NCBI RefSeq assembly: GCF_019665785.1
Contig: NZ_CP081149.1
Location: 124,001-188,000, forward strand
Direction of reading: 5' to 3'
From: Deefgea piscis
GTDB lineage: Bacteria; Pseudomonadota; Gammaproteobacteria; Burkholderiales; Chitinibacteraceae
DNA: 64,000 nt
The notes below the pieces were generated by a model. That model was given only the letters and a program-made list of their open reading frames with translations, did no database searches and was not told where the DNA came from. Position numbers and translations under genes: made by a program. Shown piece by piece: positions 26,361-57,427 of the stretch; positions within the stretch are counted from its first letter, which is position 1, and every line of letters begins with the position of its first letter.

Positions 26361-26436
<76 letters not shown>

Positions 26437-38422: not shown

Positions 38423-38449
38423 CCTATACTGGTTCAAAGGAGTCAAAAA

Positions 38450-38878
38450 ATGAAAATCGGCGAACTAGCCAAGCTGGCGCAATGCTCGGTTGAAACTATT
38501 CGGTTTTATGAAAAAGAAGGGCTACTGCCCACGACGGAGCGAACGCAGGGTAATTTTCGGGTCTATGGCTCCGCGCATATTGAGCGCCTGCGTTTTATCC
38601 GCAATTGCCGCGCCCTCGATATGAGCCACGAAGAAATCCACACCTTGCTGCGCTTGGCCGATCAAGGTGGCGATGGTTGTAGCGCGATTAATGATGTGTT
38701 TGACGAGCACATCGCCCACGTAGACACCCGCATCAAAGAACTCGAACAGCTCAAACAACAACTCGCCGAGCTACGCCAAAACTGCCAAAGCAATCACAAC
38801 CCTTGCGGTATTTTGCAAGGATTAGCCGAAATGGAAACCCCCAGCAAACCCGACAAAAAACGCACGCATCTTGGGTGA
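38450..38878 (+). CDS. cadR: MerR-family Cd(II)/Pb(II)-responsive regulator
   Basis: A 142-residue MerR-family activator starting at the ATG at 38450 (AAAGGAGT upstream); earlier codons are discounted. The N-terminal winged HTH reads MKIGELAKLAQCSVETIRFYEKEGLLP. Metal ligands likely include Cys in GGDGCSAIND and the C-terminal NCQSNHNPCGIL, matching the CadR/PbrR cysteine pattern. It would activate cadA from the promoter at 38228-38258. Confidence 0.92.
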   Translation: MKIGELAKLAQCSVETIRFYEKEGLLPTTERTQGNFRVYGSAHIERLRFIRNCRALDMSHEEIHTLLRLADQGGDGCSAINDVFDEHIAHVDTRIKELEQLKQQLAELRQNCQSNHNPCGILQGLAEMETPSKPDKKRTHLG

Positions 38879-39610: not shown

Positions 39611-42600
39611 ATGACAAAACGCGTTGCCATCCTCGGTTATTCTCACAGACTGCCTAATTCAACCGGTAATAGCTACTGGGATAATCTTCTGAATGAAGAA
39701 GATCTAATTACCGAAGTCGAGGCTGGCCGCTGGTCTAAAGAAGCATTTCTCCACGCCAATAAAAACCACGCTGGCACCAGCTACACCTTTAAAGCCGGTT
39801 CAATTGGCGATATTTCTGGTTTTGACGCGGGCTTTTTTGGTATTGCCCCGCGCGAAGCGGCGCAAATGGACCCGCAACAACGCATTTTGCTTGAGCTCAG
39901 TTGGGAAGCCTTAGAAAACGCAGGCATCAAGCCATCAACGATTCGTGGCAGCCAGTGCGGCGTATATATTGGCATTGCCAGCGCAGATTATTCCTATCGT
40001 TTAGCCGACGATTTAGCCGCGATTGATTCAGCCGTTGCCACCGGTAACACCGCCAGCATTGCCGCCAACCGACTCTCCTACGCGCTGGATTTACGTGGCC
40101 CGAGCATGGCGATTGATACCGCCTGTTCGTCCTCAATGGTGGCTTTTCATCAAGCCTGCCAATCGATTATTTCTGGTGAAAACACCCAAGCCTTAGCGGG
40201 CGGCATCAGCCTGCATTTGCACCCTTATGGCTTTATTATTTTCTCCAAAGCCTCAATGCTGTCCAAAAAAGGCCATTGCAATGTCTTTGATGAAGCAGGC
40301 GATGGCTATGTGCGCTCAGAAGGCGGCGGGATTTTTGTCTTAAAAGATTATGATTTAGCCCTTGCCGATGGCGATCCGATTATTGCCGTGGTCGCGCATT
40401 CGGGCGTCAATACCGACGGCAAAAAAAATGGCCTCACCGTACCTAGCTGCACCGCGCAAGCCGAGCTACTTAAGCAAACCTACGCCAAAGCCGGCATCGC
40501 GGCCAGCGAGATTGATTATCTTGAAGCACACGGCACCGGCACTGCAGTCGGCGATCCAATCGAAACCCGCGCCATTGGCCTCGCACTTGGCCAACACCGC
40601 AGCAGCGAATCGCCATTACTCATTGGCTCGGTCAAAAGTAATCTTGGCCATTTAGAAGCCGCCTCGGGCGTAGCGGGTTTAGTCAAAGCCTTGCATTGCA
40701 TCCAATACCGCTTGGTGCCAGCAACGATTGGCATTAAAAAACTCAATCCAAAAATTAAATTTACTGAGCTCAACCTTAAAGTCGTCACCCAAGCGCAGCC
40801 ATTAAAAGCCACTGGCCGCTTAGTGATTGGCGTGAATTCCTTTGGTTTTGGTGGCGCCAATGCCCATGTGATTTTAGAAAGCGCACCACCAGCTACTGCC
40901 AGCGCGTCAGCAACGCCAGCGCAAGCATTGCCAATTATTTTAAGCGCTCGCGCTGCCGCCGCCTTGCCTGCTGCTGCGAGCGATCTAAATGACTACCTCG
41001 CCAAAACGCCCGATTACAACGTTTATGATCTGGCTTACCAGCTGGCATTGCGCCGCGAGCAACACCCGCATCAAGTGATGGCGTTTTGCCAAACGCCAAG
41101 CGAAGTCAGTGCATTTTTAAGTCAAGTGATTGAGCAATCTGAGCAAGTTCTTGGCGGAAAAAGCATCGCCAAAGCCCAAGGGCCGGTGTTTGTTTTCTCG
41201 GGCAATGGCTCGCAATGGGCCAGCATGGGCCGATCTTTACTCGCCAGCAACGCCGTATTTCAACAAGCGATTGCCGAAGTTGACGCGCATTTTATGCCGC
41301 TCAGCGGCTATGGATTACAAGACGAAATCGCCGGGCGCAATGGTCAAGATAGCGACAATCGCTATGCACAAACCGAGATCGCCCAACCGGCACTGTTTGC
41401 GATTCAAGTAGGCCTAGTGCAAATGCTGCGCAGCCAAGGCATTACGCCAAGCGCCGTAACTGGGCATAGCGTGGGTGAAGTGGCTGCCGCGTGGGCCGCT
41501 GGCGCGCTAACGCTCAAAGACGCCACCGCAGTGATTTATCATCGCAGCCGTATGCAAGGCCAAACCAAAGGCAGCGGACAAATGACCGCCGTCGCCATGA
41601 GCGAAAGCGAAATGCATGCGCTATTAGCCGAATGCGGCCTCAACATTGCCATTGCTGGCATTAATAGCACACGGGGTATTACGCTGGCTGGCGAAGTAAA
41701 TGCATTAACTCAAATCGAAGCACAACTCGCTCTGCGTAATATCCGCTTTAAACGCCTTGATTTGGATTACGCATTTCACAGCGCAAAAATGGATCCAATT
41801 GAAGACGATTTAATTGCCGCACTAAGCCACATTAAACCGCAATTAAATAGCATTGCATTTTATTCCACTGTAACCGGTGAATTACTCAGCGGCGAACAAC
41901 TCAATGCCCAATATTGGTGGCATAACATCCGCCAACCGGTGCAATTTGAAAATGCCATTAATGCGATTAATCAAACTGGTGCAAATGTCTTTTTAGAAGT
42001 CGGCCCACATAGCGTATTGCGCTCGTATATTTTAGAAACGCTAAAAAATAATGCTTGCGAAGGTTTGGTCGTTGGCACATTAAGCAAAACCGAACACGGC
42101 GAAAATAAAGTCTTTAGCGCCATGGCCAGCATCATCGCCAGTGGCTGTGACATCGACTGGGCGACGCAATTTCCAACGCCCGGGCAATTTATGCAATTAC
42201 CCAATTACCCGTGGCAACGCGAACGCTTATGGATCAATACCAGCACCGAATCCATCGGCCAACTGAGCCGCGATATGCTGCACCCCTTGCTGGGCTACGC
42301 GCTCAAGCAACACACTAGCAGCTGGGAAAACCAACTCGACACCATCAAAAACACCGTACTGGCCGATCATATCGTTGGCGACGCGGTGGTTTTCCCTGGC
42401 ACTGGCTATGTGGAGCTGGCGCTGGCAGCGGCCAACCAGCACACCCAAAGTGCACTGATTGAAATTGAAGAATTAGAAATCCTCGCGCCGCTGATTTTAG
42501 CCGAATCCCCGGCCAAGCTCGTTCGCACCGTGATTAGCGGGCAACAAATCCACATCAGTGCGCGGGACTATTGTGGTGAAGACGTCTGGACCAGCCATGC

Positions 42601-45600
42601 CAAAGCGCGCATTAAGCCCGAACCTAATGCGCTGTTACTCGCGCAAAGCCACATTCAAATTCCGCAGCGCGGCGTCGATTTTAATTGCGCCAGCCATCAA
42701 GCGCTGACTCAAGCGGCGGGGCTGGATTACGGCGCGGCGTTTTTGTGTGTTGAGCACGGCTGGATCGATGGCAATCAAGTGATTGCCAAGCTGCAATACC
42801 CAAGCGAGCTGCAAGTCGAGCTGGCCGATTATCACTTGCACCCAGCGCTGCTCGACTGCACATTCCAGCTGATTATTCAGCTATTGCAAGACGAAATGGC
42901 GGCGCTATCAGGCGTGGCATTTGTGCCGACCAAAATTGGCCGCATTGCTTTTGCCAGCAACGCCAATCCACCGGCTTTTGCCCAGCTCACCTTAATTCAA
43001 CGTGCGCCGCATTCTTTAACCGCAGATTTCATTATTTGCGACGCGGCGGGTGATGTGATTGTTGCGATTAAAGAAGCGCGCTTTCGCAGCGTTCGGCTGC
43101 GGAAAACCCAACACGATGCACTGCATCTGCTGCACTATCGTGGCCAAGCCGCGCCTTTACCGGCACAGCAATTACCACAACTACCAGTGAGCGCACTGGC
43201 GGCTAGCTTGCAGCAACACGTTGCCAGCTTAAGCGAGCAAGCCGAGTTTAATCGCTATTTAAACGAAGTTGAGCCACTGCTCGACAGCCTTGCTAGCCAT
43301 AGCAATATTGAGCTACTGGGCGAACTTGATACCACCAACAACTCAGAGCGCTATCTCAACTGCTTGGCGATTGCCGCCAAAGATCAGCTGATCGAGCGCC
43401 ATGGCGAGCAATGGCAACGCAGCGCCAATTGCGACGACGGCATTAGCGCCAATGCCATTTGGCAAGTCTTGGTCAGCGAATACAGCGCGTATTTCCACAG
43501 CATTCATGCGATTGGTTTGGCCAAAATTCGCCATCAAGCCGATTTTGATCCGAGCGCAGCGCAGCCGCAACTGGCCGCCAGCGATTATCCAGCCCTGTGG
43601 CGCGCCGCTTTAGGTGGTCAGCGCCAACAAGCGCTAGCCAAACAGATCGCCGATTTACTCGCCGAGCACGCCGCAAAGCTCGATATTGGCCAACGCCTGA
43701 GTATTTTAGAAGTTGCCGCAGGCGCACCGATTTTTGCCCAAGAAGCCGCCAGCCAACTCGATTTAGCCCACTGCGACTATGGGTTTGCCACGCCATCGGA
43801 TGACACTTTGGCCGAGCTCGCGCAATGGCGGCAGCAGCTGCCAGATTTACGCATCGAGAAAATCCCAGCCATCGATCAAATCGAGCGCACCGTGCCACTC
43901 GGCGTTGATCTAGCGATAGTGAGTCTGGATTTTAGTGATGTCAGCAGCGCCAAAGCCGCTATCGCTTACGCCAGCGCGCAATTGGCTCCGCAAGGCAAGC
44001 TCTTGCTGATCGGTCGTCATCGTTCGCAATGGCTGGATTTTGTTTGCGCCGATCTCGCTCAGCCACTGGAAAACCCAAGCGAATACTGGGCAAACCACCT
44101 CAGCCAGCAAGGGTATTGCTGTGCAGACGTCATTGAAGTTGCGCCTGATCGCTATACCGACTTGTTCTTCCAAATCGCCAGCATCGATCAAGCTGCGCCG
44201 ATTGCAGTAGCTGCTAGCGCAAAAACGCCTTGCCTCGTGCTCATCGAGCCAACGCAAATCGACGATGCCGCGCATAAACTATGGCTAACTGAACTGCAAC
44301 AACAACTGAGCGTGCAAGGCATTGATGCCGAGCTGCATCAGGCCAACAGCGATCAACCGCTCAATGCCGTTGTCAGCCAATTATTTAGCGCGCAACGCGG
44401 GCATATTATTGTTCACCCAGGGTATAGCCCTGCGAGCGACAGCTTAAGCGTGCTGGCGCAACAAACCCAACGCTGCGGGCAATTGGCGCAATTACTCAAC
44501 GCCGTCGAGCAAAGCCAATGCGCTGCCGACTGCTGGATTATCACTCAAGGTGCCACCGATCTAACCCCAACAGCACCGGCGTTAGATCGCGCCGACAGTG
44601 CGCTGTGGGGTTTTGCCCGCACCTTGCTTAATGAAGCCAGCGATGCTGCGTTTCACTTAATCGACTTTGCCAGCAATAACCCGGCGATTCAGACCGCCGC
44701 ATTGGCGCGAGAAATCACCGCGCACAGTCCCGAGCAAGAAGTCATTATCGACGCCAATGGCGCGCGCTTTGTGCCGCGCCTACAGTTAGTGCCAGCAGCG
44801 CATAGCGAAAAAACCGCCGCCAGCGACGGCGAAATCATCCAGCTTGGTTTTGAATTCCCCGGCCAATTACGCAATCTACGCTGGGCCACCACCACGCCTG
44901 CCCCGCTGGCTGCCGATCAAATCGACATCGACGTGGTGGCGACTGGGCTTAACTTTCGCGATGTGATGTATGCGCTGGGTTTACTCTCGGATGAAGCGGT
45001 CGAAAACGGTTTTGCTGGCCCGACCCTAGGGCTTGAATTTGCTGGCGTGGTGCGCCAAGTGGGCGCCGACGTGGTGGGTTATCAAGTTGGTGATGAAGTC
45101 GTCGGTTTTGGACCATCGAGCTTTGCCAATCGGGTGCGCACCCAGAGCAGCGCCATTGCTAAAATCCCCGCTGGCATTTCATTTGCTGCCGCAGCGACGA
45201 TTCCTAGCGTGTTTTTCACCGTGTATTACGCGCTGCAGCATCTGGCGCGCTTAGAGCCGGGCGAAAAAATCTTAATTCATGGTGCTGCCGGTGGCGTGGG
45301 CATTGCCGCGATTCAATTGGCCAAGCACTTAGGCGCAGAAATTTACGCCACAGCCGGTTCGGACGAAAAACGCGCCTTCTTGCAGCAAATGGGTGTGCAG
45401 CATATTTATGATTCGCGCTCGCTGAGCTACGCCGATGAAATCTTGCGCGACACCGCTGATTTAGGCGTGGATGTGGTGCTCAATTCGCTGGCCGGTGAAG
45501 CGATTAATCGCAATTTCTCGGTACTCAAACCGTTTGGCCGCTTCTTGGAATTAGGCAAACGCGACTTTTACGAAAACAGCAAAATCGGCCTGCGGCCATT

Positions 45601-47077
45601 CCGTAATAACATCAGTTATTTCGGTATTGATGCCGACCAAATGATGCAAGTGCGTCCAGCGCTCACCCAGCGTTTGTTTACTGAAGTGATGGCGCTGTTT
45701 GGCGAGGGTGTATTGTCGCCATTGCCGTATCAAGTGTTTGACGCCGAGCAGATTGTCGACGCCTTCCGCCATATGCAGCAGGCCAAACAAATCGGCAAAA
45801 TTGTCGTCACTTATTCGCACGGCCTGATGGCGCAGCATGCCGCGCCGCAGCCAGCCGCATTGCAACTCTCGGCAGAGGGCAGCTATTTAGTCACTGGCGG
45901 TTTAGCCGGATTTGGCCTTAAAACCGCGCAATGGTTAGCGGATAAAGGCGCTAAAAACCTGGTGTTAATAAGCCGCAGCGGCCCAAGCGCACCCGAAGCG
46001 CAAGCGGCGATTGCCGCGCTGCGTTTGCGCGGTGTGAAGGTGTTGCCACTGGCTTGCGACGTGACCCAATTGGCAGAACTGGCCCAAGTATTTGCCCACT
46101 TTGGCCAAACCATGCCGCCGCTCAAAGGCATTGTGCATGCTGCGGTAGTGATTGATGACGCGCTGATTCGCAATACCGAGCCGGCGCAAATCAATAAAGT
46201 GCTCGCTCCCAAAATGCTGGGCGCAGATTATTTGCATCAACTGAGCGCGCCGCTCGATTTAGATTTCTTTGTGCTGTATTCATCGGCAACGACGATTTTT
46301 GGTAATCCGGGCCAAGCGAGCTATGTCGCCGCCAATCATTATATGGAAGCGCTAGCGCAGCAACGCCGCGCCCAAGGCCTACCCGCCACCAGCGTTTGCT
46401 GGGGTGCGATTGACGACGTGGGCTTTTTGGCGCGTAACGAAAAAATCAAAGATGCGCTACAAAACCGCATGGGCGGCAAGGCGCTGAGCTCCGATCAAGC
46501 ACTCAATTATTTAGAGCAAATGCTGATCGAGCAAAGCTCGGGCTTGAGCGTATTAGAGCTAGATTGGCCTGCTTTGGCGCGCTTTTTACCGAGCGCCAAA
46601 ACGCCAAAATTTAGCGCCATCGCCCGCCGCATGCAAACATCCGAACAAAATGACGAATCAGGCGATATTCAAAGCCTGATCGATACGCTCAGCGATACTG
46701 AGCTGCACGCCACTTTTGTTAGCATGCTCAAGCAAGAAGTCGCGCAGATTTTGCGCGTGAATGCCGACAAAATCGACGCTAGCGGCTCTTTATACGACAT
46801 CGGTTTAGATTCGCTGATGGGCGTTGAACTCGTCGTTGCGCTAGAAGAGCGTTTTGGTACTCGCCTGCCGGTGATGGCATTAAGCGAAAGCCCAACGATT
46901 AACAAACTCGCCGATCGCTTGATTTTGCAGCTCAAACACCACGATGCCGCCAACGACGACGCCACGCTGGCGCAAGTGCAGCATTTGTCGGCCGTACACG
47001 GCGCAAGTAGCGAAACCGATTCACACGCTTTAGCCAGCCAAATCAGCCAGCAAAGCACTACGCGGATTATTCAATGA
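39611..47077 (+). CDS. Highly reducing type I polyketide synthase (RkpA-like)
   Basis: A 2488-residue single-module PKS. Domains in order: KS (Cys172 in DTACSSS, His307 in EAHGTGT, His347 in NLGHLE); AT (Ser620 in GHSVGE); DH (His920 in DHIVGDAVVFPG, a D at the usual second Gly, then LHPALLDCTFQ); a methyltransferase-like region about 1220-1480 with a poor SAM motif (LEVAAGAP); ER (NFRDVMYALGL, LIHGAAGGVGIAAIQLA); KR (YLVTGGLAGFGL, catalytic SYVAANHYMEAL); and ACP (Ser2401 in GLDSLMGVEL). There is no thioesterase. KR, DH and ER together predict a fully reduced acyl chain from iterative use. Start overlap with the next gene is ATGA at 47074. Size and neighbours match RkpA of Sinorhizobium capsule loci. 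Confidence 0.92.
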   Translation: MTKRVAILGYSHRLPNSTGNSYWDNLLNEEDLITEVEAGRWSKEAFLHANKNHAGTSYTFKAGSIGDISGFDAGFFGIAPREAAQMDPQQRILLELSWEALENAGIKPSTIRGSQCGVYIGIASADYSYRLADDLAAIDSAVATGNTASIAANRLSYALDLRGPSMAIDTACSSSMVAFHQACQSIISGENTQALAGGISLHLHPYGFIIFSKASMLSKKGHCNVFDEAGDGYVRSEGGGIFVLKDYDLALADGDPIIAVVAHSGVNTDGKKNGLTVPSCTAQAELLKQTYAKAGIAASEIDYLEAHGTGTAVGDPIETRAIGLALGQHRSSESPLLIGSVKSNLGHLEAASGVAGLVKALHCIQYRLVPATIGIKKLNPKIKFTELNLKVVTQAQPLKATGRLVIGVNSFGFGGANAHVILESAPPATASASATPAQALPIILSARAAAALPAAASDLNDYLAKTPDYNVYDLAYQLALRREQHPHQVMAFCQTPSEVSAFLSQVIEQSEQVLGGKSIAKAQGPVFVFSGNGSQWASMGRSLLASNAVFQQAIAEVDAHFMPLSGYGLQDEIAGRNGQDSDNRYAQTEIAQPALFAIQVGLVQMLRSQGITPSAVTGHSVGEVAAAWAAGALTLKDATAVIYHRSRMQGQTKGSGQMTAVAMSESEMHALLAECGLNIAIAGINSTRGITLAGEVNALTQIEAQLALRNIRFKRLDLDYAFHSAKMDPIEDDLIAALSHIKPQLNSIAFYSTVTGELLSGEQLNAQYWWHNIRQPVQFENAINAINQTGANVFLEVGPHSVLRSYILETLKNNACEGLVVGTLSKTEHGENKVFSAMASIIASGCDIDWATQFPTPGQFMQLPNYPWQRERLWINTSTESIGQLSRDMLHPLLGYALKQHTSSWENQLDTIKNTVLADHIVGDAVVFPGTGYVELALAAANQHTQSALIEIEELEILAPLILAESPAKLVRTVISGQQIHISARDYCGEDVWTSHAKARIKPEPNALLLAQSHIQIPQRGVDFNCASHQALTQAAGLDYGAAFLCVEHGWIDGNQVIAKLQYPSELQVELADYHLHPALLDCTFQLIIQLLQDEMAALSGVAFVPTKIGRIAFASNANPPAFAQLTLIQRAPHSLTADFIICDAAGDVIVAIKEARFRSVRLRKTQHDALHLLHYRGQAAPLPAQQLPQLPVSALAASLQQHVASLSEQAEFNRYLNEVEPLLDSLASHSNIELLGELDTTNNSERYLNCLAIAAKDQLIERHGEQWQRSANCDDGISANAIWQVLVSEYSAYFHSIHAIGLAKIRHQADFDPSAAQPQLAASDYPALWRAALGGQRQQALAKQIADLLAEHAAKLDIGQRLSILEVAAGAPIFAQEAASQLDLAHCDYGFATPSDDTLAELAQWRQQLPDLRIEKIPAIDQIERTVPLGVDLAIVSLDFSDVSSAKAAIAYASAQLAPQGKLLLIGRHRSQWLDFVCADLAQPLENPSEYWANHLSQQGYCCADVIEVAPDRYTDLFFQIASIDQAAPIAVAASAKTPCLVLIEPTQIDDAAHKLWLTELQQQLSVQGIDAELHQANSDQPLNAVVSQLFSAQRGHIIVHPGYSPASDSLSVLAQQTQRCGQLAQLLNAVEQSQCAADCWIITQGATDLTPTAPALDRADSALWGFARTLLNEASDAAFHLIDFASNNPAIQTAALAREITAHSPEQEVIIDANGARFVPRLQLVPAAHSEKTAASDGEIIQLGFEFPGQLRNLRWATTTPAPLAADQIDIDVVATGLNFRDVMYALGLLSDEAVENGFAGPTLGLEFAGVVRQVGADVVGYQVGDEVVGFGPSSFANRVRTQSSAIAKIPAGISFAAAATIPSVFFTVYYALQHLARLEPGEKILIHGAAGGVGIAAIQLAKHLGAEIYATAGSDEKRAFLQQMGVQHIYDSRSLSYADEILRDTADLGVDVVLNSLAGEAINRNFSVLKPFGRFLELGKRDFYENSKIGLRPFRNNISYFGIDADQMMQVRPALTQRLFTEVMALFGEGVLSPLPYQVFDAEQIVDAFRHMQQAKQIGKIVVTYSHGLMAQHAAPQPAALQLSAEGSYLVTGGLAGFGLKTAQWLADKGAKNLVLISRSGPSAPEAQAAIAALRLRGVKVLPLACDVTQLAELAQVFAHFGQTMPPLKGIVHAAVVIDDALIRNTEPAQINKVLAPKMLGADYLHQLSAPLDLDFFVLYSSATTIFGNPGQASYVAANHYMEALAQQRRAQGLPATSVCWGAIDDVGFLARNEKIKDALQNRMGGKALSSDQALNYLEQMLIEQSSGLSVLELDWPALARFLPSAKTPKFSAIARRMQTSEQNDESGDIQSLIDTLSDTELHATFVSMLKQEVAQILRVNADKIDASGSLYDIGLDSLMGVELVVALEERFGTRLPVMALSESPTINKLADRLILQLKHHDAANDDATLAQVQHLSAVHGASSETDSHALASQISQQSTTRIIQ

Positions 47078-48384
47078 GTATCACCAGCAAATTGAAAGAC
47101 CAGCTGATTCAGCAAGCGCTAGAGCGCAAGCTTAAAAACGCCGAAGCGCCCATCGCTCGCCCCGCTGCGCGCGACGATATCCCCGAAGCGTTTTATCGTT
47201 TTCATCTGCATCCGGGCTATTTGCAGCTGCGTATCATCAATGAAGGCGCCAAAAAAATGGGCATTGCCAGCCCATTTTTTAAGCAACACGACGGCATCGC
47301 TGGCGCGGTCAGCCAAATCGACGGCCAGCCGTTTATCAACTTTGCCAGCTACAACTACCTCGATTTAAATCAGCACCCCGCAGTGCACCAAGCAGCCAAA
47401 GACGCGATTGATCAATATGGCGTTTCGGTCTCGGCCAGCCGCGTGGTCTCTGGCGAGCGGCCTATTCACCGTGAGCTGGAGCGCGCCATTGCCGATGCCT
47501 ATGGCGTCGATGATGCAGTGACTTTTGTTAGTGGCCACGCCACCAATGTCAGCACCATCGGCCATTTATTTGGCCCTAAAGACTTGGTGCTGCATGACGA
47601 ACTAATTCACAACAGCGCCTTGCAAGGCATTTTGCTGTCGGGCGCCAAACGCCTACCGTTTGCCCACAATAATTACGCCGCGCTGGACGAAATTCTCAGC
47701 ACACAGCGCCGCCAATTTGAGCGCGTCTTGATTGTGGTTGAAGGCATTTACAGCATGGACGGGGATTTTCCCGATCTGCCTAAACTCATCGAAATCAAAA
47801 ATCGTCACCGCGCCTTGCTGATGGTCGATGAAGCGCATTCATTTGGCGTAATGGGGCCAACCGGCATGGGCATCCGCGAGCATTTTGGCATTGCCGGGCA
47901 AGACGTTGATATCTGGATGGGCACACTGAGCAAAACGCTATCGGCGTGCGGCGGCTATATCGCAGGCGAAGCAGCGTTGATCGAGCATTTAAAGTTTTTG
48001 GCACCCGGATTTTTATACAGCGTGGGCATGCCAGCGCCTGTTGCCGCTGCGGCCTTGGCGGCGCTCAACTGCATGCAGCAAGAAAACCAACGCGTGCAAA
48101 CGCTACAAGCACGCGGCCAATACTTTTTGACGCAAGCCAAACAACGCGGCATCGACACCGGCCACAGCGCAGGCTTGGCGATTATCCCTGCGATTGTTGG
48201 CAGCTCACTCAAAGCCGCGCGTTTATCAGCAGCGCTATTTGCGCAAGGGATGAATGTGCAGCCGATTCTTTACCCCGCCGTGCCAGAAAAAGCCGCGCGA
48301 CTGCGATTTTTTATTAGCTGCGAGCACAGCGAGCAACAAATCGACGCCACGCTCGACGCACTGCAAGCAGCATTACGCACTTAA
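47074..48384 (+). CDS. Alpha-oxoamine synthase (RkpG-like, PLP-dependent)
   Basis: A 436-residue fold-type I PLP enzyme of the 8-amino-7-oxononanoate synthase / KBL / serine palmitoyltransferase group. Lys287 in TLSKTLSACGGY is the PLP lysine; VDEAHSFGVMGPTGMGI and YNYLDLNQHP are family motifs. An extra ~65 N-terminal residues distinguish it from BioF. Members join an acyl thioester to an amino acid with loss of CO2. Coupled to the PKS gene by an ATGA overlap, it may release the PKS chain as an alpha-aminoketone; acyltransfer without condensation is an alternative. Confidence 0.9.
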   Translation: MSITSKLKDQLIQQALERKLKNAEAPIARPAARDDIPEAFYRFHLHPGYLQLRIINEGAKKMGIASPFFKQHDGIAGAVSQIDGQPFINFASYNYLDLNQHPAVHQAAKDAIDQYGVSVSASRVVSGERPIHRELERAIADAYGVDDAVTFVSGHATNVSTIGHLFGPKDLVLHDELIHNSALQGILLSGAKRLPFAHNNYAALDEILSTQRRQFERVLIVVEGIYSMDGDFPDLPKLIEIKNRHRALLMVDEAHSFGVMGPTGMGIREHFGIAGQDVDIWMGTLSKTLSACGGYIAGEAALIEHLKFLAPGFLYSVGMPAPVAAAALAALNCMQQENQRVQTLQARGQYFLTQAKQRGIDTGHSAGLAIIPAIVGSSLKAARLSAALFAQGMNVQPILYPAVPEKAARLRFFISCEHSEQQIDATLDALQAALRT

Positions 48385-49203
48385 ATGGCCAAGTATTCGC
48401 TGATTTTTCGGCAGCTGATCACCGAACTATTGGCGGCCAAAGCGCCCGCCATCGAACAAAAAATCCCGGTCGAGCGCCACCTGATCGAGGATATTTTGCG
48501 CGAAGGTCGGCGCAAAAATAATATCCACCTAGTGAGCGAATTTTGCAGCGACACCGCGCAGCAATACCGCAAAGAGCACGGCATCTCACTCACCAGCTGG
48601 ATTGCCAAAGGCTTGGCGTGCGCAATTCATGAAGATTTGGCGATTCAGTCGAGTTTGCGTGGCAAAAGCACGCGGGTGATTTTTCAAGATGTTGATATCG
48701 CCGTGATGATAGAACGGCAACTCGCCGACCAATCCTACCAGCCCCTGCATTACATCATTCGCAACGCGGGCAGCAAAAGTCTAGCGCAAATCCAAGCCGA
48801 ATTAAGCCAAGCCAAAACCGGCGAAATCGGCAACGGCGGGCCACTCACCGCCTTAGAATTGGCGTTTTTTAAGCTGCCTAGCTGGCTTAGAAAACCAGTG
48901 TGGTGGTGGCTGCGCTATGACCCCTATTCGCGCAAGCAAATGCTCGGCACTGTGGGTATTACCTCAAACGGCATGTTTGCCAAAGGCGCAGCGGTGATAC
49001 TCCCCATATCGCCACTGAGCCTCAGTTTGTCCATCGGCGGCGCCAGCCAGCGCATCGTCGCCAGCGGCGAGCAATTTAAAACCAGCGAATATATACAGCT
49101 CAACCTCACCGCCGACCACGACGTCACCGACGGCGCCCCCCTCATGCGCTTCGCCACCCGCCTCACCACGATCCTAGAACAAGGTCACTCGGAACTGCGG
49201 TAA
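48385..49203 (+). CDS. CAT/E2-fold acyltransferase
   Basis: A 272-residue protein with the chloramphenicol-acetyltransferase / 2-oxoacid dehydrogenase E2 catalytic fold but no lipoyl domain. The active-site motif HDVTDG is at residues 245-250 (catalytic His245), and the late segment ILPISPLSLSLSIGGASQR matches the family core. It starts immediately after the oxoamine synthase stop, so it is co-translated. It could N- or O-acylate the lipid made by the two preceding enzymes. It is not part of the classical rkpA/G/H/I/J set. Confidence 0.78.
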   Translation: MAKYSLIFRQLITELLAAKAPAIEQKIPVERHLIEDILREGRRKNNIHLVSEFCSDTAQQYRKEHGISLTSWIAKGLACAIHEDLAIQSSLRGKSTRVIFQDVDIAVMIERQLADQSYQPLHYIIRNAGSKSLAQIQAELSQAKTGEIGNGGPLTALELAFFKLPSWLRKPVWWWLRYDPYSRKQMLGTVGITSNGMFAKGAAVILPISPLSLSLSIGGASQRIVASGEQFKTSEYIQLNLTADHDVTDGAPLMRFATRLTTILEQGHSELR

Positions 49204-49216
49204 TTCAAACCAAGCT

Positions 49217-50851
49217 TTAGCGACCAAAAGCCTGTAACACCTCACCAGCCAATTGATGCGCGGCGATGGTGTGATTCGATTTGGCCGCATCCGCGTGAGC
49301 AATCCATGGTGCGCAAATGCGCACCCTACGTGATGCTGATTCGTAACGCTTGTAGGGTGCGCCTTGGCGCACGCGGTGGCGATGGGAGTGCGTTTTGTCT
49401 GGGGTTTGCCAAATAAAATAATCTGTGTTGCCGCTGGGCGCGCCGTGGGTGGCGTAGACCTTGGGGAGGATGGGCACATGGTCGCCGTACCAACACAAGG
49501 TGGCAGGTCTGGCTAAGGCCATGAGTTGCTCGCGTAGCTGCGCCAACATCCGATTGGCGTTGACTTGGTGGCGCAAATAAATCGTTAATTCTTCGCCGTC
49601 TTGTGGCGCTGCGCCGTGAAACACCTGCTCGGCGTCACCCTCTGCCAATTGCTCTAAATGCAATGGGCCGTGGTTTTCCATGGTGATGACAAAAATAAAC
49701 GTCGGCTGCGTGGCTTGCGCCAGCACCTCACCCATTTTGGTCGCCACTTGCAAATCATCCACATACGGCATGCCTGCGGGCGGTGGCGCAAAAGCGCTGA
49801 TGTCGATAAATTCATCAAAACCCAATTGCGGATACAAGGCATCGCGGTGGTAAAAACTAGCCGCATACGGGTGAATGCACACGGTGCGATAACCCTGCTG
49901 GCGCAACTGCGCCGCCAATGACGCCGAATACTGACGGGCAAAACGGCGGTAAGGATTAAATTGATGCACGCCCAATTGCTGCGGCGATAAGCCCGACAAA
50001 AAAGCAAATTCGCTACGCACGGTATTTGCGCCCCAAGCCGGTACTTCCAGCTGGCCATACTGCAAAGACTCGGCGCAAAACCGATCATATTCGCTCAAAA
50101 TATCCGGGCGAATTTGCGGATAATAGCGCCGAAAATCAACAAAAGACTCGCTTTGCACCACCAATAAATGCGGCAAAACACCATGATTTGGCTGCGGCAT
50201 CGGCCACGCTGGCGGCGTTAACTCGGGCTGGTGTTGCTCGGCCCAATAGTACGCAAATAAAGTCGCAAAAAAGCCAAACTGTTGCTGATCCCGCGTTGGG
50301 CAAAACTGCATCGGCGGCACGGCGCGGCGCAATAACTGCACCGCCAGCCAAACCGCCAACACCAAGCCCGCCCACGCCGACCAATACACCGCGTAGCTGA
50401 CTGAATTGAGTACCGAATCTTCTAGCGCCACGCCCAAATACAGCAGCGCAAAAAACAGCGCGGTACAAACCAGCGCCTTCGCCACGCCAAAAAAAGGCAG
50501 ATACAAGCGTGGATGGCGAATCGCATCGGCGATGTATTCAAAATCTTGCACAATAAATGGCTCGCGCAAGCTGTGAAACTTACTATTGCTAATCAATACC
50601 AGCAGCAACAACAAGCCCGTTGCCAACACCGCCGCAAACGCTGGGCGCTGAAACAAAGCCAGCTCAAAACAAAACAATCCCGTCCAAGCGCACACCAACA
50701 AAGCATTCATCGCCCAAGGTCGCCGCCAAATTGCCTGTGGCCGAGGCTGGGCCAAACGCTCAATCAGCACCGTCGCAAGCAGCCCCAACGCCACCGGCCA
50801 AGCGCACGCCAACGCCAACAACTGCAACCCTGCAAACAATCCATCAAACAC
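49217..50851 (-). CDS. LTA-synthase-like phosphoglycerol transferase / sulfatase-fold protein (RkpI-like)
   Basis: A 544-residue inner-membrane protein with five N-terminal helices and a periplasmic alkaline-phosphatase-fold domain. Metal and nucleophile motifs of the LtaS/OpgB type are VVQSESFVD, WGANTVRSEFAFLSG (Thr nucleophile), MENHGPLH and WYGDHVPILP. It likely transfers a phospho-alcohol group onto a lipid or glycan. Near the C-terminus about 35 residues (after FIWQTPDKTH, to IAHADA) are encoded by a dispersed repeat that entered the gene in frame. It overlaps the SDR stop by 8 bases. Confidence 0.85.
   Translation of the reverse strand: MFDGLFAGLQLLALACAWPVALGLLATVLIERLAQPRPQAIWRRPWAMNALLVCAWTGLFCFELALFQRPAFAAVLATGLLLLLVLISNSKFHSLREPFIVQDFEYIADAIRHPRLYLPFFGVAKALVCTALFFALLYLGVALEDSVLNSVSYAVYWSAWAGLVLAVWLAVQLLRRAVPPMQFCPTRDQQQFGFFATLFAYYWAEQHQPELTPPAWPMPQPNHGVLPHLLVVQSESFVDFRRYYPQIRPDILSEYDRFCAESLQYGQLEVPAWGANTVRSEFAFLSGLSPQQLGVHQFNPYRRFARQYSASLAAQLRQQGYRTVCIHPYAASFYHRDALYPQLGFDEFIDISAFAPPPAGMPYVDDLQVATKMGEVLAQATQPTFIFVITMENHGPLHLEQLAEGDAEQVFHGAAPQDGEELTIYLRHQVNANRMLAQLREQLMALARPATLCWYGDHVPILPKVYATHGAPSGNTDYFIWQTPDKTHSHRHRVRQGAPYKRYESASRRVRICAPWIAHADAAKSNHTIAAHQLAGEVLQAFGR
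49300..49395. repeat. Dispersed repeat copy inside the LTA-synthase-like gene
   Basis: Contains cgtagggtgcgcatttgcgc-like and gccaaggcgcaccctac-like segments plus ccatcgccaccgcgtgc (read on the minus strand), matching the tandem units at 38926-39140. It adds codons near the gene end without breaking the frame. Confidence 0.8.
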
Positions 50852-51608
50852 GATAACCGATCCAACCTAAAACTCGCTGCGACAACGCCGCCGGCAATAC
50901 CGCCAACCACCAACTGCCCCAATTAAGCGGAAAAGGAAAACTAATCCGCGCCCGATTGCGCTGCAAACCGCGCTGAATATACGCCGCCGCGCGCTCGGGC
51001 GACCATAGCCAAGGCTTAGGCCCGGGCATGGCCTCGCACATTGGCGAAGTTACATAGCCCGGCATAATTACATTCACCGCAATGCCCTCATCAGCCAATA
51101 AAGCGCGTAAACCCTCGCCATACGCCTTAATCGCCGCCTTACTGGCGCTATAACTTGGCGTCATCGGCAAGCCAAAATACGCCGCCAACGAGCTGACCAA
51201 AGCAATCTGCCCCGATCCGCGCTGGCGCATCGCCGGTAAAAAAGCATTCACCAAGGCCAAGGTGGCCAATACATTCACCTCAAACAAGCGCTGCATATCG
51301 GCCCACAACTCGCCCTCGGCGGTATCGGATACATTAATATTGACCCCGGCATTAGCAATCAATAAATCCGGCACGTCGTCCACCAAGCAGCGCGCCGCCC
51401 ACGCTTGCAAAGCGTCAATATCGCGGCAATCGAGCACCACCGGCAGCACACTCGCGCCTTGCTCGCGGCAAGCTTGCGCCACCGCCTCCAAGCGATCTGC
51501 ACGCTGGCCGAGCAAAATCAAACGCACCCCGCTCGCGGCATACGCCAGCGCCAAAGCGCCACCAATCGCGCCCGTAGCGCCGGTAATTAAAATGGATTGA
51601 GCAGACAT
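50844..51608 (-). CDS. Short-chain dehydrogenase/reductase (RkpH-like)
   Basis: A 254-residue classical SDR. Cofactor motif TGATGAIGGALA, NAG motif ANAGVN, catalytic Ser in LVSSLAAYFG and YSASK. A C-terminal hydrophobic segment (SWWLAVLPAALSQRVLGWIGY) may tie it to the membrane. An Arg after the first strand (LGQRADRLEA) suggests NADPH. RkpH-type role: reduction of the keto group on the lipid product, consistent with an oxoamine synthase in the same locus. Confidence 0.88.
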   Translation of the reverse strand: MSAQSILITGATGAIGGALALAYAASGVRLILLGQRADRLEAVAQACREQGASVLPVVLDCRDIDALQAWAARCLVDDVPDLLIANAGVNINVSDTAEGELWADMQRLFEVNVLATLALVNAFLPAMRQRGSGQIALVSSLAAYFGLPMTPSYSASKAAIKAYGEGLRALLADEGIAVNVIMPGYVTSPMCEAMPGPKPWLWSPERAAAYIQRGLQRNRARISFPFPLNWGSWWLAVLPAALSQRVLGWIGYRV

Positions 51609-51690: not shown

Positions 51691-51780
51691 AACGCAGAGG
51701 CGCAGAGCAAAAAATCAGCACAGGTTTAAAGCGTTTAAGTTCTAACTCGGCCTTTCTCTGCGTCTTTACGTCTCTGCGTC
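51691..51780. repeat. Inverted acgcagag/ctctgcgt repeat overlapping the kpsS 3' end
   Basis: aacgcagaggcgcagag (from 51691) and ctctgcgtctttacgtctctgcgtc-type sequence (51756-51780) face each other and can pair into a hairpin. The right arm lies inside kpsS and encodes its last residues (TQRRKDAEK). Confidence 0.7.
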
Positions 51781-53045
51781 AAAAGGTTTTCCTTCACAGT
51801 ATTAAGAGGATATTTCTCAATTAATTGCGCCAAAGCCGAGCGCTCGGCGCTCAGTTGCGCGGTGCTGGCAGCCATAGCCAGCTGGATGCTTTCATTACAA
51901 TAAAATCCGCCATTCACTTGCGAGGCCTGCATGATGGTGGCGCGAAAGCGCGCAAATAATTCGGTCGATGGCGCAATGCCATTAGCCCAAAAATCATCCA
52001 GCGCCCCCTGAAAAGTCAGCCCAGCCACATTGTAAATTGGATTACTTAGCGTAATGGTTGGGCAGCCCAATTCAATCGCCAAACTACCCGCCGTGCTATT
52101 AACAGTGACCATGCCGCTGGCGCGCTCAATTAAATAATTAATCACCCCGCCCTCTAAATACACAATGCGCTGGGCGACATCAAATTGCGCGGCGGCTTGC
52201 GCCACAAAATCAGCGTAATTTTCTAAACCATAATCTAAAGGATGATTTTTAATCACCAACAAACTATCGCTAGGCGCATGGCGGGCAAACGATTGCATCA
52301 CATGCAAAATAAACTGCTGCATATGCTCAAATTGCGAATGCTGGCGAATTTGCGCATCGCTATTGAGCTGCAAAGGCATTAAATAAAACGGCGTAGTCGA
52401 ATGCAATAACTGCGCTATTTTGGCCGATTCGGTTTTTTTATTTATTTTGGCCAATAAATTACGCCGCAAAAATCCGGCATATTCAATCGGCGCAATCACC
52501 GGTGCATGCGTTTGATAGCCCGGATACAAAATTGGATTCCAGCAACCGGCCAAATGATAAGCCACATCGTGTACCGATCTAACTTTGAATTTGGTTCTAA
52601 ACATTTGATATTCAAATGAATGCTGCGCCAATAAATCTTGCCCCACTTGCCAATACCAATCGGCATCACGCGGCAACATAGAATTAGCATTCACCCCACC
52701 GCGCTCTAAGGTAATCCAATGCGGGCGAAAATAGCCTTCTTCAAAAGCATGCACCTCAATGCCAAGCTGCTTGGCCAAAGCAATCGCCGGCAAATGCACT
52801 GGCCGGCAATCCCCAAACACCACAATATCGCTAATCGAAAATTGCTGATATTTGTGCGCCAAATAGTCGCCCAAATCATTCACATCACCGCGATAATGCC
52901 AAGCAGGCATGCGCCAATACAAATCATCACCGGCATTAAAATTAAGCTTATAAACCGTATGCCCAGCCGCACGCAAATGCAGCGCCAAATCTCTAAAAAA
53001 TGGCGAACAAATACCCTGCAATAAAAGAAATACTTTTGTATTCAT
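51735..53045 (-). CDS. kpsS: Capsule Kdo transferase KpsS
   Basis: A 436-residue cytoplasmic capsule protein. The start FLLLQGICSPFFRDLALHLRAAGHTVYKLNFNAGD, the acidic motif AFEEGYFRPHWITLERGGVNANS and LGCPTITLSNPIYNVAGLTFQG are KpsS signatures. KpsS adds the first beta-Kdo to a lipid (phosphatidylglycerol in E. coli), beginning the poly-Kdo linker of group 2 type capsules. The ATG at 53045 with GGGAT upstream is chosen. The final ~12 residues come from an intergenic-type repeat. RkpJ of Sinorhizobium belongs to the same family. Confidence 0.93.
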   Translation of the reverse strand: MNTKVFLLLQGICSPFFRDLALHLRAAGHTVYKLNFNAGDDLYWRMPAWHYRGDVNDLGDYLAHKYQQFSISDIVVFGDCRPVHLPAIALAKQLGIEVHAFEEGYFRPHWITLERGGVNANSMLPRDADWYWQVGQDLLAQHSFEYQMFRTKFKVRSVHDVAYHLAGCWNPILYPGYQTHAPVIAPIEYAGFLRRNLLAKINKKTESAKIAQLLHSTTPFYLMPLQLNSDAQIRQHSQFEHMQQFILHVMQSFARHAPSDSLLVIKNHPLDYGLENYADFVAQAAAQFDVAQRIVYLEGGVINYLIERASGMVTVNSTAGSLAIELGCPTITLSNPIYNVAGLTFQGALDDFWANGIAPSTELFARFRATIMQASQVNGGFYCNESIQLAMAASTAQLSAERSALAQLIEKYPLNTVKENLLTQRRKDAEKGRVRT

Positions 53046-53079
53046 TAGATCCCAAAACAAGCCAACACATACAGTTTAC

Positions 53080-53413: not shown

Positions 53414-54421
53414 CTACTCATCGGCCAAGGCCATGGCGCGGCGGATGATGTCGGGGGCGATTTCTCGTGGCTCGCCGCCGTGGCCGGATTCGTGCTCATA
53501 CACCAACGATTCAATCGGCCCGGCGCGATCGCGCGCCAAGCTGGCGTCCAACTTAAAATGCGCGCAAAGCGGCACAAAATACTGCTTAAAATGAAAAACA
53601 TCCTGCGTGTTTTGCACATACAAACACCGCATATCGGGGCTGGATTCAATCGCCACAATCGCATTAAATTGCGGATCGCCCTGCGCCAAAACGCTGGGAT
53701 TATTTTTATTCGGAAAGCATTTTTCAACAAAATTGGTAAACAAACGCGCAGGCTGAATTTGCCACAAATGCGTTTGCGTATTAATCGCCACGGCGGTGGC
53801 GTTTTTTAATCGCGCCGCCAATTGCATCGCCGCAAACCCACCCGCCGACGAGCCATAACTAATCACCTGCTTTGAGCTCAAACCCAATGATTGCGCCACA
53901 TGCTGGGTAATCTGCGTTAAACCATTCAGGCCATCAATCGATTCCGTGCCCAAATACCACGCCGTTTGCGGCCCGGCGGGCAAATAATGGCAAGGATCAG
54001 AAATATACAAAACGCTACCGGGGAATAAATGCGTAAACGTCAGCCGATCAAACTTGGGAATCGGGTGCCGATTGGGCGTGCGCAAGCCCGACAGCACCAC
54101 AAACAAATGCTCGCCTTTTTGCGGCGCAAACATGCAATCGAAGCGCAAACCATCCATCGCCACACTAAATCGACCATGCGGAATAATCGCTTGGCTAAAC
54201 TGCGCAAAACTAGCGAAATGACACTGCTCTGGCTCTAATAAAAACAACAACTCGCGGCGCAGCTTTTGTTTTTGATTCCTCAGCGCCGTCGTTTCTACCT
54301 GCCGCATCAAAGCCCACAATTGCTTGGACTTATGATAAATCGGCATCGCATTACGCAGTATTGACCTGCACTGCTCAAACCAGCGCCGCCCGTAGGCTAT
54401 ACCCCTGACTTTTAGATTCAA
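53414..54421 (-). CDS. Capsule-locus alpha/beta hydrolase
   Basis: A 335-residue protein with an alpha/beta-hydrolase core. The nucleophile elbow is ISYGSSAGGFAAMQLA, and the likely catalytic His is in YEHESGHGGEP near the C-terminus; the strand LFVVLSGL and SVLYISDP precede. It starts inside the kpsC stop (ATGA at 54421), so it is co-translated with kpsC. Hydrolases of this build occur in capsule and glycan loci with unclear roles, perhaps deacylation or trimming. The N-terminal ~80 residues are basic and lack recognisable motifs. Confidence 0.7.
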   Translation of the reverse strand: MNLKVRGIAYGRRWFEQCRSILRNAMPIYHKSKQLWALMRQVETTALRNQKQKLRRELLFLLEPEQCHFASFAQFSQAIIPHGRFSVAMDGLRFDCMFAPQKGEHLFVVLSGLRTPNRHPIPKFDRLTFTHLFPGSVLYISDPCHYLPAGPQTAWYLGTESIDGLNGLTQITQHVAQSLGLSSKQVISYGSSAGGFAAMQLAARLKNATAVAINTQTHLWQIQPARLFTNFVEKCFPNKNNPSVLAQGDPQFNAIVAIESSPDMRCLYVQNTQDVFHFKQYFVPLCAHFKLDASLARDRAGPIESLVYEHESGHGGEPREIAPDIIRRAMALADE

Positions 54422-56454: not shown

Positions 56455-57427
56455 TCACATCTTGAATTTGTTGCAAACGATGCGCCCAAGTATGGTGCTG
56501 CAACACATACTCGGCCCCAGCACGCGCCCGCTCTAAATCTTGCGGCGCAGGCCCATGGCGCAAACGATCAAACAAATCCTTGGCCTCAGCCATGTCTTGC
56601 ACCACATGACAATAATCGCGAAACAGCCCATCCACCGCTGGCGTAGGATTGGTCACTGCAATACCACCGCAGCCCAAAATCTCGACCAAGCGCCGCGAAA
56701 ACATCGTTGGCGAATCCTCAATCGTATTCACATTTAACGACACCAAAAAATCCCGATACAACTGCGCCGTTTGCCCATGCGGCACCGCAGGCAACACCTG
56801 CAAATTAGGCAAATCTGGAAACCGATAATGGCCAGCCTTACGCGCCGAATTGCGATCCACCACCGTTAAACCCAAGCCCGTATCGGCCGCCGCAGTAAAC
56901 AACATATCCTGCCAAGCGCGCCGCCGATCATGCACATGATGGCTATAACTACCGACAAAATTCGCCCGATGATGCTTAAAATCAAAACCACGAAAACCAT
57001 GCGTGCGCGGCTGAATCGCAAACATCAGCGTATGCACCGAAGCCTGCTCACCCATCACTGCCTTGTATTTGGCAACGCAATTGGAATCAACCGTAAACAC
57101 ATGATCAAACCATCGGGCGCTATCAATAAAGCGATCAAAATGCACGCCGTCTTCTTTATTCCAAAAAACCGTCGGAATCCCCCGATCACGCGCATACGCC
57201 ACCAAGCGCTGCAAACGCAAATTATTGCGCTTGGGATAATCGGGATAAGCCGCCACCCCAAACTTCCACGTATTACGCCAACCGGCCCAAGCCGACTCAA
57301 CCAACAAAAAATCGGGTCGAAACAAAGCCAATTGCGCGCGATACGTATAAGGAGTCAGGATGGAAACATTGGCATCCAAACGCACACTTGCGGTGGTTAA
57401 TTCATCTGCCAATAAGGCCAATCGCAT
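56444..57427 (-). CDS. CgeB-like glycosyltransferase
   Basis: A 327-residue putative glycosyltransferase of the CgeB/DUF3880 type. Key stretches are LLVESAWAGWRNTWK, GIPTVFWNKEDGVHFDRFID, FDHVFTVDSNCVAKYK, and the C-terminal SPTMFSRRLVEILGCGGIAVTNPTPAVDGLF, which is the nucleotide-sugar side of a GT-B fold. It is a shorter paralogue of the first catalytic domain in the 1456-residue protein upstream. GAAGG precedes the ATG. Confidence 0.8.
   Translation of the reverse strand: MRLALLADELTTASVRLDANVSILTPYTYRAQLALFRPDFLLVESAWAGWRNTWKFGVAAYPDYPKRNNLRLQRLVAYARDRGIPTVFWNKEDGVHFDRFIDSARWFDHVFTVDSNCVAKYKAVMGEQASVHTLMFAIQPRTHGFRGFDFKHHRANFVGSYSHHVHDRRRAWQDMLFTAAADTGLGLTVVDRNSARKAGHYRFPDLPNLQVLPAVPHGQTAQLYRDFLVSLNVNTIEDSPTMFSRRLVEILGCGGIAVTNPTPAVDGLFRDYCHVVQDMAEAKDLFDRLRHGPAPQDLERARAGAEYVLQHHTWAHRLQQIQDVIGV

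What the first reader, a model, noticed from the sequence alone, without database searches (positions are those of the whole stretch)
39611..51608. PKS + oxoamine synthase + CAT-fold acyltransferase + SDR: a possible sphingoid-like lipid pathway tied to capsule genes
Seen: a fully reducing PKS without thioesterase, translationally coupled to an alpha-oxoamine synthase, then a CAT/E2-fold acyltransferase; an SDR and an LTA-synthase-like gene face them, next to kpsS/kpsC. Known: oxoamine synthases such as serine palmitoyltransferase condense acyl thioesters with amino acids; an SDR reduces the ketone; N-acylation gives a ceramide. Inference: the module makes an amino-alcohol or ceramide-like lipid and the LTA-synthase-like enzyme modifies it. 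It could serve as capsule anchor in place of, or beside, lyso-PG.
Basis: partly seen in the sequence, partly recalled or inferred. Interest (0 to 1): 0.9.

Follow-up and report, generated by a model that had tools for sequence, protein, structure and literature searches.

The report
Sphingoid-lipid genes beside capsule-start genes
A bacterium carries genes that probably build a sphingosine-like lipid with a glycerol-phosphate head beside the genes that start a surface sugar coat; the same partnership recurs in distant bacteria and suggests that one class of bacterial capsules hangs on a sphingolipid instead of an ordinary phospholipid.

Summary
A fully reducing type I PKS without thioesterase (39611-47077) overlaps an alpha-oxoamine synthase (AOS) by 4 bases; an E2/CAT-fold acyltransferase, an LtaS-like transferase, an SDR, kpsS and kpsC follow. 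This is the RkpA/WcbR type of cluster, long proposed to make a capsule lipid carrier, and is homologous to PfSgaABC, reported in 2025 to make sphinganines and probable phosphoglycerol-sphinganines; that paper's main text does not mention capsule. I joined the two: among 398 Pseudomonadaceae genomes, the 7 with an AOS at least 76% identical to the query all have SDR, LtaS-like, kpsS and kpsC genes beside it. KpsS falls into two groups: 21 of 22 in one come with the LtaS-like/SDR genes, 0 of 11 in the other. Best reading: PKS+AOS+SDR make a sphinganine, the LtaS-like enzyme adds glycerol phosphate, and this lyso-PG look-alike is the KpsS acceptor. Shown: genes, motifs, linkage, KpsS split. Inferred: the chemistry here. 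Against: no Kps exporter was found in this genome, LtaS-type active sites face the periplasm, and some loci break the pattern. The acyltransferase's substrate is unknown.

The parts
39611..47077 (+). sgaA/rkpA/wcbR-type fully reducing type I PKS (KS-AT-DH-degenerate MT-ER-KR-ACP), no thioesterase
   Evidence: homologues
47074..48384 (+). sgaB/rkpG/wcbT-type alpha-oxoamine synthase (expected condensation of serine with the PKS-bound acyl chain); start overlaps the PKS stop by 4 bases
48385..49203 (+). stand-alone E2/CAT-fold acyltransferase, HxxxDG intact, no lipoyl domain; possible N-acyl or N-acetyl transferase
49217..50851 (-). LtaS/GacH-like phosphoglycerol transferase (wcbQ position), five TM-like segments, invariant Glu235/Thr277/Asp457/His458
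50844..51608 (-). SDR (sgaC/wcbP position), candidate 3-ketosphinganine reductase; TGATGAIG, NAG, YSASK
51735..53060 (-). kpsS-like beta-Kdo transferase, in the KpsS group linked to the lipid genes
53414..54421 (-). alpha/beta-hydrolase-like protein between kpsS and kpsC (weak Pfam match below cut-off), role unknown
54418..56454 (-). kpsC-like beta-Kdo transferase
56444..57427 (-). glycosyltransferase (PF13524) next to kpsC; a 59% identical gene lies by a kpsC-like gene in Neptunomonas japonica

Best explanation
The module makes a phosphoglycerol sphingolipid that stands in for lyso-phosphatidylglycerol as the lipid on which KpsS and KpsC start a Kdo-linked surface glycan. Steps: (1) the PKS builds a saturated long acyl chain on its ACP; (2) with no thioesterase, the oxoamine synthase releases it by decarboxylative condensation with serine, giving a 3-ketosphinganine; (3) the SDR reduces the ketone; (4) the LtaS-like enzyme moves glycerol phosphate from phosphatidylglycerol to the 1-OH, leaving the same terminal glycerol that lyso-PG offers; (5) KpsS adds the first beta-Kdo and KpsC extends it. 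In Deefgea the E2-fold enzyme may acylate the amine. Shown here: gene identity, intact motifs, conserved linkage, matching KpsS group. Shown elsewhere for the homologous SgaAB: dependence of sphinganines on both genes, serine use by SgaB in vitro; its phosphoglycerol products were inferred from mass. Inferred: all chemistry in this organism, above all steps 4 and 5 and the acyltransferase step.
For: PfSgaAB experiments (PMC12134224, sections 7-9 and 15 read). All 7 Pseudomonadaceae loci with an AOS at least 76% identical to the query hold SDR, LtaS-like, kpsS and kpsC; G849 and G837 nearly match published sgaA/sgaB end primers at the gene ends (2-4 mismatches) and G849's PKS ends in the six residues that the sgaA primer encodes. 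In 369 class-level genomes 7 of 9 with AOS at 55% or more have KpsS, against 16 of 369 overall, Fisher p 2e-9. Strong LtaS-like hits: 8 of 8 genomes with linked-group KpsS, 0 of 8 with the other group. KpsS tree: 21 of 22 against 0 of 11. Plasmids: at least 10 of 14 AOS records have kpsS, 2.6-11 kb away, and 11 of 14 an LtaS-like gene. Novosphingobium and Acidisoma loci keep LtaS-like+SDR+kpsS without PKS. Closest solved structure by sequence and by fold is the phosphoglycerol transferase GacH. KpsS adds Kdo to (lyso-)PG (passages of PMC7694667).
Against: No KpsM-type permease found in this genome: the one ABC2_membrane hit lies by a MlaA-like ORF and the one OPX gene in a distant EPS-like locus, so export here is unexplained. 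LtaS-type active sites are periplasmic while KpsS acts in the cytosol (recalled), so a flip is needed. Of 18 plasmid records with an LtaS-like gene, 3 (2 Roseomonas, 1 Paenibacillus) have it without AOS or listed kpsS. Cupriavidus USMAA2-4 KpsS sits in the linked group with no LtaS-like gene within 14 kb nor, at E<=1e-20, on the plasmid. G289 has PKS+AOS+SDR without LtaS-like or kps genes. Low-identity AOS loci (G004, G092, G197; three Pseudomonadaceae) lack LtaS-like, kpsS and kpsC. In G332 and G158 kpsS and the LtaS-like gene lie on another contig than PKS/AOS, and G314 has them without the AOS. The 154 Da head group was assigned by mass only. MYb115's own locus was not read here.
Confidence: 0.6

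Rival explanations
1. The PKS/AOS/SDR make the anchor lipid, but the LtaS-like enzyme decorates the polysaccharide with glycerol phosphate rather than the lipid.
For: Suggested in print for WcbQ of Cobetia marina, whose capsule has mannose-6-phosphoglycerol (passages of PMC11766843); the closest structure, GacH, decorates a polysaccharide (recalled); a periplasmic active site suits it.
Against: The gene tracks the KpsS group and mostly sits beside the SDR in many different loci; the related Sga strain makes lipids read as phosphoglycerol-sphinganine (PMC12134224).
Confidence: 0.2
2. The lipid is a free sphingolipid (signal or membrane lipid) and the capsule genes are only neighbours.
For: In MYb115 free sphinganines and their +154 Da forms are detected and correlate with a host effect (PMC12134224); no Kps exporter was found in this genome; G289 has the lipid genes without kps.
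Against: Linkage to kpsS in alpha-, beta- and gammaproteobacterial records and the split of KpsS itself; rkp-1 mutants are reported as K-antigen deficient (passages of PMC4881576).
Confidence: 0.13
3. The AOS uses another amino acid (glycine or alanine), so the product is an aminoketone or deoxysphingoid that cannot take a phosphoglycerol head at C1.
For: The AOS scores below the curated cut-offs of all 11 NCBIfam models it matches.
Against: PfSgaB showed virtually exclusive use of serine over alanine and glycine (PMC12134224); the LtaS-like gene calls for a hydroxyl to modify.
Confidence: 0.07

Closest known systems
PfSgaAB(C) of Pseudomonas fluorescens MYb115 (PMC12134224)
   Same: PKS + AOS + SDR; near relatives have LtaS-like, kpsS and kpsC genes beside them
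   Different: E2-fold acyltransferase here, GNAT and often PhyH in the Pseudomonas loci; capsule not mentioned in that paper's main text (supplement not seen)
Sinorhizobium rkp-1 (rkpA, rkpGHIJ)
   Same: A S. meliloti record has PKS, AOS, SDR, an LtaS-like stretch and kpsS in one run (called rkp-1 by me from its gene content); rkp-1 is described as making a K-antigen lipid carrier
   Different: No hit to the E2-fold acyltransferase; lipid not identified in the passages I saw
wcb-type operons (Burkholderia, Cobetia wcbPQRT)
   Same: Caballeronia and Paraburkholderia plasmids give SDR, LtaS-like, PKS, LpxC-like, AOS in a row (match to the wcb letters partly recalled)
   Different: They carry an LpxC-like gene, and KpsM/KpsT-type export genes lie close by, which were not found here
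E. coli group 2/3 KpsS-KpsC glycolipid terminus on (lyso-)PG
   Same: Same Kdo transferase families
   Different: The E. coli plasmid KpsS falls in the other KpsS group, without these lipid genes
Canonical bacterial SPT/ceramide pathway
   Same: Same oxoamine-synthase family
   Different: AOS below the SPT model cut-offs; the chain comes from a PKS

Membership tests
rkp-1/wcb capsule-lipid cluster | RkpA/WcbR-type PKS next to RkpG/WcbT-type AOS | tested here: met
   S. meliloti AOS 50-51% identical to the window AOS
rkp-1/wcb capsule-lipid cluster | SDR and LtaS-like gene in the same locus | tested here: met
rkp-1/wcb capsule-lipid cluster | kpsS in the same locus | tested here: met
rkp-1/wcb capsule-lipid cluster | Needed for capsule production | not testable with these tools
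   needs mutants
SgaABC sphinganine pathway | Fully reducing PKS without thioesterase + AOS + SDR | tested here: met
SgaABC sphinganine pathway | AOS condenses L-serine with an acyl thioester | not testable with these tools
   only by homology to PfSgaB
Group 2/3 ABC-dependent capsule | KpsS and KpsC | tested here: met
Group 2/3 ABC-dependent capsule | KpsM/T exporter with KpsE/D | tested here: not met
   two KpsM-like proteins do match PF01061; a divergent exporter is not excluded
Canonical bacterial SPT | Over the NCBIfam SPT cut-offs | tested here: not met
   292.6 of 640, 257 of 500, 195.2 of 670 bits
LtaS/GacH phosphoglycerol transferases | N-terminal membrane helices plus sulfatase-fold domain with catalytic Thr and metal ligands | tested here: met
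   (residue roles recalled); activity not tested
E2 acyltransferase of 2-oxoacid dehydrogenase complexes | Lipoyl domain with the catalytic domain | tested here: not met
   PF00198 only in 26 of 26; fold shared

The most novel reading that the evidence does not exclude
KpsS comes in two acceptor classes. One primes capsules on lyso-PG. The other, found in rhizobia, Burkholderiales, Pseudomonas, Neptunomonas, Deefgea and Novosphingobium, primes on phosphoglycerol-sphingoid lipids made by a dedicated PKS+AOS or, where the cell has another sphingoid source, without the PKS. The unidentified rkp-1/wcb lipid and the host-protective phosphoglycerol-sphinganines of P. fluorescens MYb115 would then be one thing: the capsule-anchor precursor.
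Probability: 0.5. Interest if true: 0.87.

Novelty: new variant of a known kind. Interest (0 to 1): 0.72.

Why it matters
The lipid carrier of rkp-1/wcb-type capsules has been postulated for decades, and in the passages I saw it still has no identity. Joining it to the Sga chemistry names a molecule, an enzyme for each step and a test. It would mean that a class of Gram-negative capsules is tethered by sphingolipids, would explain why bacteria without a classical SPT make them, and would recast a host-protective metabolite as a surface-glycan precursor. KpsS sequence alone might then tell the anchor type.

Tried and rejected
Rejected: BioF/KBL role for the AOS (below cut-offs, and coupled to a PKS). 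Rejected: pyruvate-dehydrogenase E2 role for the acyltransferase (no lipoyl domain). Near E. coli match: none. Weakened: ceramide as the general product; the gene after the AOS varies: the acyltransferase, a formyltransferase (L011, L012, L036, L038), a GNAT (L071), or neither. Weakened: a KpsM-exported capsule in this genome. Little result: residues that separate the two KpsS groups (1 column with a different residue in 80% or more of each); the acyltransferase in 120 genomes of the order (1 of 120, the window's own, so the other genome of the genus in that sample lacks it). Its homologues do seem to belong to the module: of 13 non-window homologues whose longest contig is 12 kb or more, 12 share that contig length with a listed AOS or LtaS-like protein (my comparison of the tables; the last two list 120 of 7880 and 120 of 2889).

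The count of four genes between AOS and SDR (PhyH, Kps, GNAT, LtaS-like) in G837 and the Pseudomonas plasmid equals the gap between MYb115 tags RS19800 and RS19775, but it varies among relatives: no PhyH hit in L102, L103, L108, no GNAT hit in L108, further ORFs after the AOS in L105 and L107. It is a hint only.

Literature: ten searches listed no paper that joins rkp/wcb/kps with sphingoid bases; lists were cut (for instance 12 of 626, 12 of 18, 20 of 65) and most subscription papers are not held, so absence from print is weakly supported.

Selection in the KpsS tree: one KpsS per locus; L034 and L037-L047 gave no row of their own (KpsS of G365, G363, G158 and G332 came from L054-L057). Of 99 plasmid KpsS records (60 listed) 12 were used; the 72 of Enterobacter, Klebsiella, Escherichia, Citrobacter, Serratia and Leclercia are represented by one E. 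coli and one Leclercia. The 7 Pseudomonadaceae loci were not added. Stretches of the unlinked genome rows were first short (4.5-9 kb) and then extended (6-20 kb), again without LtaS-like, SDR, PKS or AOS hits. Structure alignment A2 used 38 of 120 listed homologues, three locus proteins and the window protein.
Full report
WHAT IS THERE. The window is part of a one-contig 3.58 Mb genome; its AOS is 98% identical to that of Deefgea salmonis. The PKS has KS, AT, DH, ER, KR and ACP over Pfam cut-offs and no thioesterase, with intact active-site motifs. Its stop codon overlaps the AOS start (ATGA). The acyltransferase starts right after the AOS stop. On the other strand the LtaS-like and SDR genes overlap by 8 bases; kpsS, an alpha/beta-hydrolase-like gene, kpsC and a glycosyltransferase follow.

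WHAT IT IS RELATED TO. Two literatures describe this cluster apart. (a) RkpA/WcbR-type PKS genes occur in capsule loci (passages of PMC3908369 and PMC4245539); rkpA and rkpGHIJ are said to make, modify and transport a lipid that may be carrier or anchor for rhizobial K polysaccharide (passages of PMC3557214, PMC4881576), and wcbPQRT is called a capsule-lipid operon in Cobetia (passages of PMC11766843). Two original rhizobial papers were not held. (b) PfSgaAB of P. fluorescens MYb115 makes C24-C28 sphinganines and compounds 154 Da heavier, read as most likely phosphoglycerol sphingolipids; SgaB condenses acyl-CoA with L-serine; an SDR, SgaC, is the presumed ketoreductase (PMC12134224, sections 7-9 and 15 read). 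That main text has no occurrence of capsule, capsular, kps, wcb or polysaccharide; its supplement was not seen.

JOINING THEM. In 398 Pseudomonadaceae genomes, 10 have an AOS at E<=1e-90 to a Pseudomonas plasmid AOS. The 7 with at least 76% identity all have SDR, LtaS-like, kpsS and kpsC next to it, and 6 of 7 a GNAT; the 3 with 43-46% identity show no LtaS-like, kpsS or kpsC in the stretches read. G849 and G837 nearly match the published sgaA/sgaB end primers at the gene ends (G849: 3 of 22, 3 of 23 and 4 of 21 mismatches; G837: 2 of 22 at the start of sgaA and 4 of 23 at its end), and G849's PKS ends in the six residues that the sgaA end primer encodes. So MYb115's genes very probably belong to the kps-linked group, though its locus itself was not read.

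LINKAGE. In 369 genomes drawn from the class, 12 have the AOS at E<=1e-100, 9 of them at 55% identity or more; 43 match PF05159, 16 of them with a KpsS-type hit (E<=1e-60, my cut). Of the 9, 7 have KpsS (Fisher p 2e-9; 7 of 12 counting all AOS hits, p 5e-8), and 6 of 9 have kpsS or kpsC within 15 kb on the same contig. In G332 the AOS lies on another contig than kpsS. The two misses are G306, whose contig ends inside its LtaS-like gene, and G289, which has PKS, AOS and SDR beside what look by eye like a glycosyltransferase and a desaturase. Of six loci found in named genomes, five reach far enough to judge, and these five hold LtaS-like, SDR and kpsS; one of them is Deefgea salmonis, a near relative. 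On plasmids 14 of 72,556 records have the AOS; at least 10 of 14 have kpsS, at 2.6-11 kb (which lists 60 of its 99 records), and 11 of 14 an LtaS-like gene; the others are Caballeronia (LtaS-like and export genes beside it, no kpsS hit in 29 kb), two Streptomyces and Planktothrix. Read the other way, 15 of 18 plasmid records with an LtaS-like gene have the AOS or a listed kpsS; the 3 others are two Roseomonas and a Paenibacillus.

TWO KINDS OF KpsS. A maximum-likelihood tree of 33 KpsS proteins puts 22 on one side of a fully supported branch, 21 of them from loci or genomes with the LtaS-like and SDR genes (17 with PKS/AOS, 4 without PKS in the stretch), and 11 on the other side, none linked; 2 label changes against a shuffled mean of 10.1, 0 of 500 shuffles as low (25-row version). 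Both sides mix taxa: Sinorhizobium, Paraburkholderia, Deefgea, Pseudomonas on the linked side; E. coli, Cupriavidus CH34 and G224, which is of the window's own order, on the other. Genome-wide, strong LtaS-like hits (E<=1e-95) occur in 8 of 8 genomes with linked-group KpsS and 0 of 8 with the other group (G145 has only an 8e-11 hit). G314, an exception by AOS, has SDR and LtaS-like genes right after kpsS. The remaining exception is Cupriavidus USMAA2-4. The shuffles ignore relatedness, so this is strong but not proof.

A NATURAL SWAP. Novosphingobium plasmids carry LtaS-like, SDR, kpsS and a sterol-desaturase-family gene but no PKS or AOS in the stretch; Acidisoma has LtaS-like and kps genes plus its own AOS (42% to the window's), SDR and desaturase, again without PKS. 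Sphingomonads make sphingoid bases by the classical SPT (recalled, not tested). What stays is LtaS-like + SDR + kpsS; the source of the base changes.

THE LtaS-LIKE ENZYME. The best sequence match in the PDB is phosphoglycerol transferase GacH (E 1e-13) with the threonine aligned; the best fold match is GacH with bound glycerol phosphate. The model has long N-terminal helices and a sulfatase-type domain (mean pLDDT 87.7); five TM-like segments; Glu235, Thr277, Asp457 and His458 are invariant in 42 of 42 aligned proteins. A phosphoglycerol on sphinganine would present the same terminal glycerol as lyso-PG, the acceptor to which KpsS adds Kdo (passages of PMC7694667). That is the core inference.

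THE ACYLTRANSFERASE. It has an E2 catalytic fold (Foldseek E 5e-15, TM 0.56 by query length, rmsd 6.7 for the best match), PF00198 and no lipoyl domain in 26 of 26 homologues, with His245, Asp249 and Gly250 invariant. It is a local option: elsewhere a formyltransferase, a GNAT or neither follows the AOS, and Caballeronia and Paraburkholderia have an LpxC-like gene between PKS and AOS. Acylation of the sphingoid amine is the natural guess; but MYb115, whose relatives have a GNAT in the locus, yields free sphinganines, so the substrate is open.

WHAT DOES NOT FIT. The window genome has one PF01061 permease, beside a MlaA-like ORF (by eye), no KpsM match at E<=1e-5, no KpsE over cut-off, and one OPX gene 0.9 Mb away in what looks by eye like an exosortase-type EPS locus. 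Two KpsM-like proteins do match PF01061. So either a divergent exporter serves here, or the Kdo-glycolipid is used otherwise. The active site of LtaS-type enzymes lies outside the cytosol (recalled), which asks for a flip of the lipid back to KpsS.

VERDICT. The cluster is a real member of the conserved rkp/wcb/sga class, with a local acyltransferase and no Kps exporter found. The new content is the identity proposed for the anchor and the two-class KpsS test.

Noticed in passing
L034:13036-13962; L071:15043-15957; L011:3572-4435; L038:17641-18486: An LpxC-like gene (over the PRK13187 cut-off in Caballeronia) sits between PKS and AOS or near them; what it deacylates is unexplained.
   Followed up: partly
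L011:2731-3489, L012:11323-12132, L036:8538-9323, L038:16248-17042: A formyltransferase follows the AOS in four loci, as if an N-formyl group could replace an N-acyl group.
   Followed up: partly
L074 and L075 (Novosphingobium), L073 (Acidisoma): Capsule-type loci with LtaS-like, SDR, kpsS and a sterol-desaturase-family gene but no PKS.
   Followed up: yes
L012:15905-16417, L036:4278-4799, L037:8811-9329: Related proteins that look by eye like NusG/RfaH recur beside three loci (one family).
   Followed up: no
L115 and L116 (Roseomonas plasmids): LtaS-like homologues in a similar setting in both, without annotated capsule or sphingoid genes.
   Followed up: partly
L041 (G289): PKS+AOS+SDR with glycosyltransferase-like and desaturase-like neighbours (by eye) and no kps genes: a possible capsule-free relative; its AOS match has one stop inside.
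   Followed up: no
L032 (record CP090106.1): The S. meliloti record is labelled pSymB but is 3.7 Mb long and carries secD; it may be a mislabelled chromosome, which would fit the chromosomal rkp-1 of the literature.
   Followed up: no
window 35936-38878: A P-type-ATPase-like gene (by eye) facing a MerR regulator upstream of the PKS.
   Followed up: no
window 26238-26599: Three tRNA-Met (CAT) genes in a row.
   Followed up: no
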